In this document: in pieces, positions 5,790 through 7,007 of the stretch
Position numbering within the stretch: position 1 is the first letter of the stretch
Layout of the letters: every line of letters begins with the position of its first letter
From: Achromobacter seleniivolatilans
Lineage (GTDB): Bacteria > Pseudomonadota > Gammaproteobacteria > Burkholderiales > Burkholderiaceae_B
Assembly (NCBI RefSeq): GCF_030864005.1
Contig: NZ_CP132976.1
Location: 5,704,001 to 5,768,000, forward strand
Reading direction: 5' to 3'
DNA: 64,000 nucleotides
The notes under the pieces: model-generated
Databases searched by the model: none
What the model was told of the DNA's origin: nothing
The model's input: the letters and a program-made list of their open reading frames with translations, nothing else
Made by a program: the position numbers and the translations under genes

Positions 5790-6338
5790 TTAGGCGTCGC
5801 GCGACAGAAACGCTTGCGGCACGTGATCCGTCAGCCAAACGCCGTTGTCGGCTTGATAGAACTTGAAGCCTTGTTCGTGCATGCGGCTGGCATCGACCGT
5901 AAGGATGACGGGGACGCCATACCGTTGTCCGACCGACTCCGCCGTCGTCCGGTTATCAGAGAGATGCACGTGTTGCCGCTGTCCGGGCTTCAAGCCTTCC
6001 TGCATGATGGCCGCGATAAAACGCGTTGCAGTGCCGTGAAAGAGTATGGCGGGCGGAATCAGGGCCGAGTAGTTGATCGCGACAGCCCGGGTGGTGTGTC
6101 CTTGAGCGGCGCGGATACGCTTGCCGTCCTCGGATATCGAGAAGCGCTGTTTGTCGTTGTCTCGAACTACCGCTCTGATCTGGGTTTCATCCAGGTCCTG
6201 GCCAGTGCGTCTTGCACCGTCGATCAAGGCCGCGATATCGGCCCAACCCTCGGTGTCCAGGGTCAGTCCTATCTCTTGCGGGTTGTGGCGAAGGACATAG
6301 CTAAGGTACTTGCTGATCTTGATAGCGTCGTTTTTCAT
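5790..6338 (-). CDS. kptA: RNA 2'-phosphotransferase KptA/Tpt1
   Basis: 182 residues, the normal length for bacterial KptA. The family removes an internal RNA 2'-phosphate using NAD+, giving ADP-ribose 1'',2''-cyclic phosphate. The four-residue active site appears intact: Arg17-His18 in VLRHNP, Arg65 in KQRFS, Arg121 in PGQRQHVHLS. The NAD-binding HGT is at 101-103. The start codon directly follows 20 AAC triplets, so there is no Shine-Dalgarno at the usual distance. The gene is in the same frame as the DUF4291 gene upstream, with only one TGA between them. The function in bacteria is generally unknown; RNA repair or ADP-ribose chemistry are the usual proposals. Confidence 0.92.
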   Translation of the reverse strand: MKNDAIKISKYLSYVLRHNPQEIGLTLDTEGWADIAALIDGARRTGQDLDETQIRAVVRDNDKQRFSISEDGKRIRAAQGHTTRAVAINYSALIPPAILFHGTATRFIAAIMQEGLKPGQRQHVHLSDNRTTAESVGQRYGVPVILTVDASRMHEQGFKFYQADNGVWLTDHVPQAFLSRDA

Positions 6339-6399
6339 GTTGTTGTTGTTGTTGTTGTTGTTGTTGTTGTTGTTGTTGTTGTTGTTGTTGTTGTTGTTG
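6339..6399 (-). repeat. (AAC)20 trinucleotide microsatellite between the DUF4291 gene and kptA
   Basis: Twenty perfect AAC units on the coding strand (GTT on the plus strand), ending flush with the kptA ATG. The DUF4291 gene ends TGA-ATA-AGC before the tract, so TGA, the AAC codons and the kptA ATG share one frame. A short stem GCCGGC-GTT-GCCGGC at 6409-6423 lies just before the tract in transcription order. Copy-number change would alter spacing by multiples of three and never the frame. CAA-type leaders are unstructured, so the tract may act as a ribosome landing site; that role is inference. Confidence 0.97.
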
Positions 6400-6404
6400 C
6401 TTAT

Positions 6405-7007
6405 TCACGCCGGCGTTGCCGGCAACGGACGTTCTTCTGGCAACAGCGCATGCGCTTCATCCCGTCGTCCGGCCACGACCAGCGCATGGATTTGATGCGC
6501 TAGTGGCGTCACTTCCGTAATCCGCGTTATCCACTGATGCACGTAACGATGCACGGATTCGCCGCCAAGTCCGATCTGTATTGCGCGGTGATTGAGCGGG
6601 TGCAAGTCCAAATCCCGCTCGGGGTCCCACTGGATGCGCACCGGCGATTCACGCTTTACGCGATCCCAATCCTGCTGGCTCATTGCCGGTTCGGCATGGC
6701 TGGCGCAGCTGTGGGACAGAGCCCAATCAAAACCTTCTCGGCTGATATCAATGGCCAAAATACGATTCTGGCCCGTGTCCTTATAGCCCCAGCCTGCGCG
6801 GTACATCATCCAAAGAAACGATGGCTTTATCCACGTCATGCGTTCCATTTTGAACGGTGGAGAAACGAAGGTGCCGTGCCTCAAGGCCGTGTCGGCGATG
6901 CTGTCGGAATACGCTTGATAGACGCGAATGGTGGCGTCGTTGTAAGAGGCTCGAATCTGGCGTTCGGGGATCGTGACGTTTGTTTTTATAGTTGTTTGTT
7001 TGATCAT
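6405..7007 (-). CDS. DUF4291 family protein
   Basis: 200 residues. The conserved DUF4291 blocks are visible: RASYNDATIRVYQAYS near the N-terminus, then RMTWIKPSFLWMMYRAGW (about residues 57-74), then LAIDISREGFDWALSHSC. No catalytic function is established for the family as far as I know. It is soluble, with no signal peptide or membrane segment. It is the first gene of a two-gene unit with kptA. Readthrough of its TGA would join it to KptA through a poly-asparagine linker. Confidence 0.85.
   Translation of the reverse strand: MIKQTTIKTNVTIPERQIRASYNDATIRVYQAYSDSIADTALRHGTFVSPPFKMERMTWIKPSFLWMMYRAGWGYKDTGQNRILAIDISREGFDWALSHSCASHAEPAMSQQDWDRVKRESPVRIQWDPERDLDLHPLNHRAIQIGLGGESVHRYVHQWITRITEVTPLAHQIHALVVAGRRDEAHALLPEERPLPATPA

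What the first reader, a model, noticed from the sequence alone, without database searches (positions are those of the whole stretch)
5790..7007. DUF4291 and RNA 2'-phosphotransferase joined in frame by TGA-ATA-AGC-(AAC)20
The 66 bp between the DUF4291 stop and the KptA ATG are almost entirely 20 perfect AAC codons, in the same frame as both genes. KptA keeps its Arg-His-Arg-Arg active site and has no Shine-Dalgarno at normal distance. Two outcomes are possible: the unstructured tract loads ribosomes for KptA, or readthrough of a single TGA makes a DUF4291-polyAsn-KptA fusion. A GCCGGC stem sits just before the tract. Perfect 60-bp trinucleotide tracts are rare in such genomes. An NAD-using RNA enzyme paired with an unknown domain could be an RNA repair or RNA-modification defence unit.
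Basis: partly seen in the sequence, partly recalled or inferred. Interest (0 to 1): 0.72.

Follow-up and report, generated by a model that had tools for sequence, protein, structure and literature searches.

The report
Paired RNA-ADP-ribose-type genes, AAC repeat
A gene of unknown function that folds like an RNA-attacking bacterial toxin sits beside an RNA-repair gene, and the two keep company in many bacteria, which hints at what this puzzling repair enzyme is for; the striking AAC repeat between them looks like an ordinary local repeat.

Summary
In detail: on the minus strand DUF4291 (6405-7007), TGA-ATA-AGC-(AAC)20, then the ATG of an intact KptA/Tpt1 gene (5790-6338), all in one frame. It is the only AAC tract of 8 or more copies in this 6.86-Mb genome. 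It was found at no other KptA or DUF4291 locus examined; seven of 42 relatives carry AAC tracts of 8-13 copies elsewhere. No fused DUF4291-KptA frame was found. The DUF4291 stop overlaps a GTG (GTGA) that opens GTG-AAT-AAG-(CAA)20, which matches the KptA start of another DUF4291-KptA locus; the repeat may be the swollen codon of an older start.

The pairing is the real finding. In 369 class genomes DUF4291 occurs in 6, KptA in 9, both in 5. KptA is present in 44 of 80 genomes picked for DUF4291. They are adjacent in several lineages, in either order. DUF4291 models confidently as an ADP-ribosyltransferase fold nearest to RhsP2, a toxin that ADP-ribosylates RNA 2'-OH. In 16 of the 80 loci DUF4291 lies tail-to-tail with a small ORF and an RhsP2-like toxin. 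Genomes of toxin loci seldom hold KptA (3 of 17). I infer that DUF4291 handles RNA 2'-ADP-ribose damage or intermediates; its chemistry is untested.

The parts
6405..7007 (-). DUF4291 gene (200 aa, PF14124), predicted ADP-ribosyltransferase fold nearest to the RhsP2 toxin domain
6405..6407 (-). TGA stop of DUF4291, the only in-frame stop before KptA; overlaps the GTG at 6408-6406
6301..6408 (-). 35-codon frame GTG-AAT-AAG-(CAA)20... that starts in the GTGA overlap and ends 38 nt past the A of the KptA ATG; its start matches the KptA start of L060 (11 of 11 bases after the first)
6409..6423 (-). GCCGGC-AAC-GCCGGC hairpin in the last codons of DUF4291
   Evidence: sequence; -10.5 kcal/mol
6339..6398 (-). 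(AAC)20 perfect tract directly before the KptA ATG; unstructured, no Shine-Dalgarno
5790..6338 (-). KptA/Tpt1 RNA 2'-phosphotransferase gene (182 aa) with R17-H18-R65-R121 and HGT motif

Best explanation
This is a two-gene accessory module of an RhsP2-fold protein (DUF4291) and the RNA 2'-phosphotransferase KptA. SHOWN by computation: DUF4291 has an ART fold nearest to the RNA 2'-OH ADP-ribosylating toxin RhsP2; it travels either with KptA (same genome, sometimes adjacent) or as the third, convergent gene of RhsP2-like toxin loci; KptA keeps its catalytic residues. INFERRED: DUF4291 acts on ADP-ribose attached to RNA at or near 2' positions. In toxin loci it would protect or mend self RNA. In KptA genomes it would clear RNA-phospho-ADP-ribose intermediates or the same toxin damage. 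The (AAC)20 tract is INFERRED to be a slippage-born repeat, perhaps the swollen CAA codon of an older GTG start of KptA, that keeps the present KptA start open, so that ribosomes ending DUF4291 at GTGA can restart and reach KptA; no fusion protein is needed.
Against: Profile-profile comparison gives no sequence support for DUF4291 being related to the RhsP2-like toxins or KptA (hhalign probabilities 0.15, 0.23 and 1.35 %). By eye the RhsP2 triad R-Y-E is not kept (Q31 in place of R; Q126, or D128/E130, in place of E), so DUF4291 may be inactive or do other chemistry. 14 of 17 toxin-linked DUF4291 genomes lack KptA, so no single pathway needs both. KptA and DUF4291 are adjacent in only 4 of 80 loci. 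The 80 loci are the best of at least 546, not a random sample; shared ancestry is not corrected. No toxin lies beside this pair; the second toxin type is absent from this genome and the first was not searched genome-wide. The older-start idea was found after the fact, and the present KptA start resembles that of G033 (ATGAAAAAC in both), which needs no older start. Nothing measures expression.
Confidence: 0.45

Rival explanations
1. DUF4291 is an active writer: an ART that modifies RNA with unusual catalytic residues, and KptA (where present) removes or limits the mark, a reversible RNA modification or toxin-antitoxin pair.
For: ART fold nearest an RNA ART; 25 invariant positions over 76 sequences suggest an active site; co-occurrence with KptA.
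Against: Catalytic Arg and probably Glu of RhsP2 are not seen (by eye); PMC12340436 (passages) reports R1490A and E1576Q inactive. KptA acts on 2'-phosphate, not on 2'-O-ADP-ribose. In 36 of 80 genomes DUF4291 stands without an intact KptA.
Confidence: 0.2
2. DUF4291 is a non-enzymatic shield or decoy: it binds the RNA or the immunity protein that the toxin binds.
For: Shared fold with the toxin, tail-to-tail position beside small ORF and toxin, triad seemingly lost (by eye).
Against: Strictly conserved polar and aromatic residues; does not explain the link to KptA.
Confidence: 0.15
3. The two genes are unlinked accessory genes that meet in variable islands; co-occurrence reflects large, island-rich genomes.
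For: Both are rare and patchy; GC 0.56-0.58 against 0.63-0.65 in the flanks; only 4 of 80 loci adjacent.
Against: Co-occurrence 4 of 5 against 4 of 363 is far beyond that; three different adjacent arrangements.
Confidence: 0.15
4. Read-through of the TGA makes a DUF4291-polyAsn-KptA fusion.
For: One stop in frame in the window and, in 3 of 3 DUF4291->KptA loci, a shared frame with one stop.
Against: Stops are TAA in the other two; reverse order and divergent loci exist; no fused frame in any locus examined; the hairpin precedes the stop; the TGA lies in a GTGA overlap.
Confidence: 0.04

Closest known systems
RhsP2-RhsI2 (T6SS Rhs toxin of P. aeruginosa that ADP-ribosylates RNA 2'-OH, with its immunity protein; 7rt7)
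   Same: Best fold match of DUF4291 and of the second toxin domain found beside DUF4291; relatives of its toxin domain lie in 10 of 80 DUF4291 loci.
   Different: DUF4291 is free-standing, not a toxin C-terminus, and does not visibly keep R-Y-E. The window pair has no toxin beside it.
KptA/Tpt1 RNA 2'-phosphotransferase
   Same: Window gene keeps R-H-R-R and HGT and matches solved bacterial and archaeal enzymes.
   Different: Nothing seen in the enzyme; new is the recurrent partner.
PARG-type RNA de-ADP-ribosylation as immunity (PMC11833690; abstract and passages)
   Same: Proposed role: an extra enzyme that protects against RNA 2'-OH ADP-ribosylation.
   Different: PARG is a macrodomain; DUF4291 is ART-fold and untested.
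Simple-sequence-repeat contingency loci (recalled)
   Same: A perfect short repeat directly before a start codon.
   Different: Unit of 3 keeps frame; no strain variation could be tested; tract not conserved.

Membership tests
KptA/Tpt1 (PF01885) | family profile over most of the protein | tested here: met
   E 5.7e-49, residues 5-171
KptA/Tpt1 (PF01885) | Arg-His-Arg-Arg tetrad and HGT motif | tested here: met
   R17, H18, R65, R121 and H101-G102-T103, invariant in 8 of 8 aligned; tetrad and HGT as in PMC6333775 passages
KptA/Tpt1 (PF01885) | NAD-dependent 2'-phosphate removal | not testable with these tools
   needs enzyme assay
DUF4291 (PF14124) | family profile | tested here: met
   E 5e-73, 245.2 bits, cut-off 27
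ADP-ribosyltransferase superfamily, RhsP2-like | ART fold | tested here: met
ADP-ribosyltransferase superfamily, RhsP2-like | R-Y-E catalytic triad (PMC12340436, passages) | tested here: inconclusive
   no residue-level structural alignment available; by eye Q31 for Arg and Q126 (or D128/E130) for Glu; hhalign found no meaningful alignment
RhsP2-type toxin-immunity locus | large toxin with ART C-terminus and a small ORF next to DUF4291 | tested here: not met
   window neighbours are TctC and a GAF-bearing regulator; second toxin type absent from G000; first type not searched genome-wide in G000
stop-codon read-through fusion | fused homologues, or a conserved leaky stop | tested here: not met
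   no fused frame in loci examined; TAA in L045 and L060
SSR contingency (phase-variable) locus | copy number varies between strains and alters expression | not testable with these tools
   one genome per species held; no second strain

The most novel reading that the evidence does not exclude
DUF4291 is a new kind of RNA-ADP-ribose enzyme: a toxin-fold protein that removes or resolves ADP-ribose from RNA 2' positions. It serves both as a second line of immunity beside RhsP2-like toxins and as the partner that finishes KptA's RNA-2'-phospho-ADP-ribose chemistry, which would explain why bacteria with no known source of RNA 2'-phosphate keep KptA.
Probability: 0.25. Interest if true: 0.87.

Novelty: new variant of a known kind. 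Interest (0 to 1): 0.6.

Why it matters
Why bacteria keep KptA/Tpt1 although many have no known source of RNA 2'-phosphate is an open question (stated in PMC6333775, passages). A partner family with an RNA-ART-toxin fold, found either with KptA or as a third gene of RhsP2-like toxin loci, gives that question a direct test. No paper in the held open-access library contains 'DUF4291' or 'PF14124', so the link appears undescribed there; subscription papers and preprints were not searched.

Tried and rejected
Fusion by read-through: looked for frames holding both domains in the loci fetched up to L172 and in the 15 DUF4291 loci of G647's family; none. The protein database search could not be made (switched off).

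Conserved AAC leader: absent (4 or more copies) from the five other KptA loci of the genus; G006 has only a short A-rich leader with CAACAA. Genus tracts in G011, G013, G016, G028, G029, G030, G031 (8-13 AAC copies) are intergenic by eye. Flanks of six of the seven match one another over tens to hundreds of bases, with several matches inside one locus, so they look attached to a dispersed intergenic repeat; G029 matched the others mainly in the tract. Only G011 has a plausible gene start close by (13 nt; a ThpR-like 2H frame, named from recalled motifs; G013 has a 74-codon frame 44 nt away). I compared the kptA tract's flanks with these by eye only.

Against the reading: profile-profile homology of DUF4291 with KptA and both toxin domains not supported; DUF4291 profile against PDB sequences gave nothing below E 0.4; the type-2 toxin of L010 has no PDB sequence match up to E 1 and its fold match has Foldseek E 0.012. 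Viral contigs and phages: no DUF4291. PMC9503650, a survey of NAD+-ADPr systems in viruses, does not mention DUF4291 in its main text (passages). Pfam on nine toxin stretches and one small ORF: nothing above cut-off. The first accessibility figure was wrong (index error); one search replaces it. No control accessory pair was run for co-occurrence. Toxin/KptA exclusivity: all 80 loci 3 of 17 against 41 of 63 (p 7e-4), Pseudomonadota 2 of 12 against 19 of 34 (p 0.04), Actinomycetota 0 of 3 against 17 of 24 (p 0.04), other phyla 1 of 2 against 5 of 5 (G690 fragment dropped; with it); not corrected for ancestry. L070's toxin match is weak (8e-5). L054's toxin lies 4.6 kb away and is left out of the 16. 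The small ORFs are mechanical; only those of cluster 21 (7 loci) are shown alike. In the family of L045's genome 15 of 217 have DUF4291 and only that genome has KptA in the fetched flank.

Full report
THE SEQUENCE. The minus strand carries DUF4291 (200 aa, 6405-7007), its TGA, ATA AGC, twenty perfect AAC units (6398-6339) and the ATG of a 182-aa KptA/Tpt1 gene. All are in one frame because the gap is 66 nt. Runs of 8 or more AAC occur nowhere else in the 6,862,680-base genome. The pair has GC 0.56-0.58 between flanks of 0.63-0.65, and DUF4291 is found in 5 and KptA in 9 of 268 genomes of the family, so both look acquired. The neighbours are a TctC receptor and a regulator with a GAF match, sigma-54-type by recalled motifs.

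THE TRACT. The 25 nt before KptA's ATG do not pair with anti-SD (+2.7 kcal/mol). The region -30 to +15 has mean unpaired probability 0.857, against 0.477 (sd 0.070, maximum 0.703) for 300 random leaders of window composition. So the tract makes an open leader. KptA leaders of relatives also pair weakly with anti-SD (G033 -3.3, G023 +1.9, G006 -1.5, G038 -4.0; G007 not computed), but L045 has -6.1 and L054 -12.6. The tract (4 or more copies) is absent from the five other KptA loci of the genus and from the other loci up to L172. Seven of 42 other genus genomes hold an AAC tract of 8-13 copies elsewhere, mostly beside a dispersed intergenic repeat and not before a gene start.

A SECOND FRAME. 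The TGA of DUF4291 overlaps a GTG (GTGA, at 6408). From it runs GTG-AAT-AAG-(CAA)20-CAT..., a 35-codon frame that ends 38 nt past the A of the KptA ATG. Its first bases equal the KptA start of L060, ATG-AAT-AAG-CAA, over 11 of 11 bases after the first; the KptA start of L045 matches over 9 of 11. L060 and L045 are the two other loci with DUF4291->KptA order. Of 4,137 ATG/GTG sites in the window, 2, this one included, match any other KptA start so well (58 distinct starts, chosen automatically). So the tract may be the swollen Gln codon of an older, stop-overlapping KptA start, the gene now starting at the ATG after it. This was found after the fact, and the present start resembles G033's (ATGAAAAAC in both), so it remains a suggestion. 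Either way slippage is the simplest origin, and restart at GTGA plus an open leader the simplest way to translate KptA.

FUSION. No locus examined holds both domains in one stop-free frame. DUF4291->KptA occurs in L045 (TAA, ATG 12 nt later) and L060 (TAA, ATG 27 nt later), both in frame as in the window. KptA->DUF4291 occurs in L054, in G406 (L118) and, with KptA a remnant, in L044. In G033 the genes are divergent and DUF4291 is broken. A shared frame in 3 of 3 DUF4291->KptA loci is noted but weak evidence; order and stop codon are not conserved.

THE PAIR IS REAL. In 369 genomes drawn from the class, DUF4291 is in 6, KptA in 9, both in 5; without the own genome 5, 8 and 4 of 368, p 4.6e-7. 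In the genus (43 genomes) DUF4291 is in 5, KptA in 6, both in 3 (p 0.014, or 0.06 without the own genome). KptA is present in 26 of 50 and 19 of 30 of those genomes (one of the 45 is a 30-residue fragment). At least one genome (L050's) seems to be in both the class sample and the 80 (same KptA coordinates). The pair is adjacent in 4 of 80.

MECHANISM. The two companions of DUF4291 are both NAD-using enzymes of RNA 2' chemistry: RhsP2-like toxins (2'-OH) and KptA (2'-phosphate through an RNA-2'-phospho-ADP-ribose intermediate; PMC6333775, abstract and passages). The reading that covers both is that DUF4291 handles ADP-ribose on RNA. PARG enzymes protecting against RhsP2 (PMC11833690, abstract and passages) show that such immunity by repair can exist. 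This step is inference.

VERDICT. The AAC tract is a curiosity; the module is worth testing. Novelty rests on the DUF4291 link, which no paper in the held library names.

Noticed in passing
window 4035-5650, minus strand: A sigma-54-type activator (by recalled motifs) appears split over two overlapping frames (5027-5650 with a GAF match, and 4035-5132), as by a frameshift or a sequencing error.
   Followed up: no
L188 (G011), rev. comp. 1045-1074: An (AAC)10 tract lies 13 nt before a ThpR-like 2H phosphoesterase frame (named from recalled motifs), a kind of enzyme that makes RNA 2'-phosphate ends; probably coincidence, as the flank is shared with tracts at other genes.
   Followed up: partly
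L188-L194: AAC tracts of 8-13 copies recur in 7 of 42 other genus genomes, mostly at the edge of a dispersed intergenic repeat.
   Followed up: partly
L206 6019-6618 (E. coli plasmid record, after apaH): DUF4291 is present in 534 of 5,426 complete E. coli genomes, 536 of 537 places on chromosomes, so the family can be studied in a laboratory species.
   Followed up: partly
L147 and L153 (G656): A Rhodanobacteraceae genome holds two KptA->DUF4291 copies on different contigs.
   Followed up: no
L016 828-1107 (G033): A DUF4291 remnant with an internal gap lies divergent from an intact KptA, suggesting the pair is lost or rearranged readily.
   Followed up: partly
L210 (G002): An RhsP2-fold type-2 toxin domain in a 3520-residue open frame, in a genome where no DUF4291 was found.
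   Followed up: no
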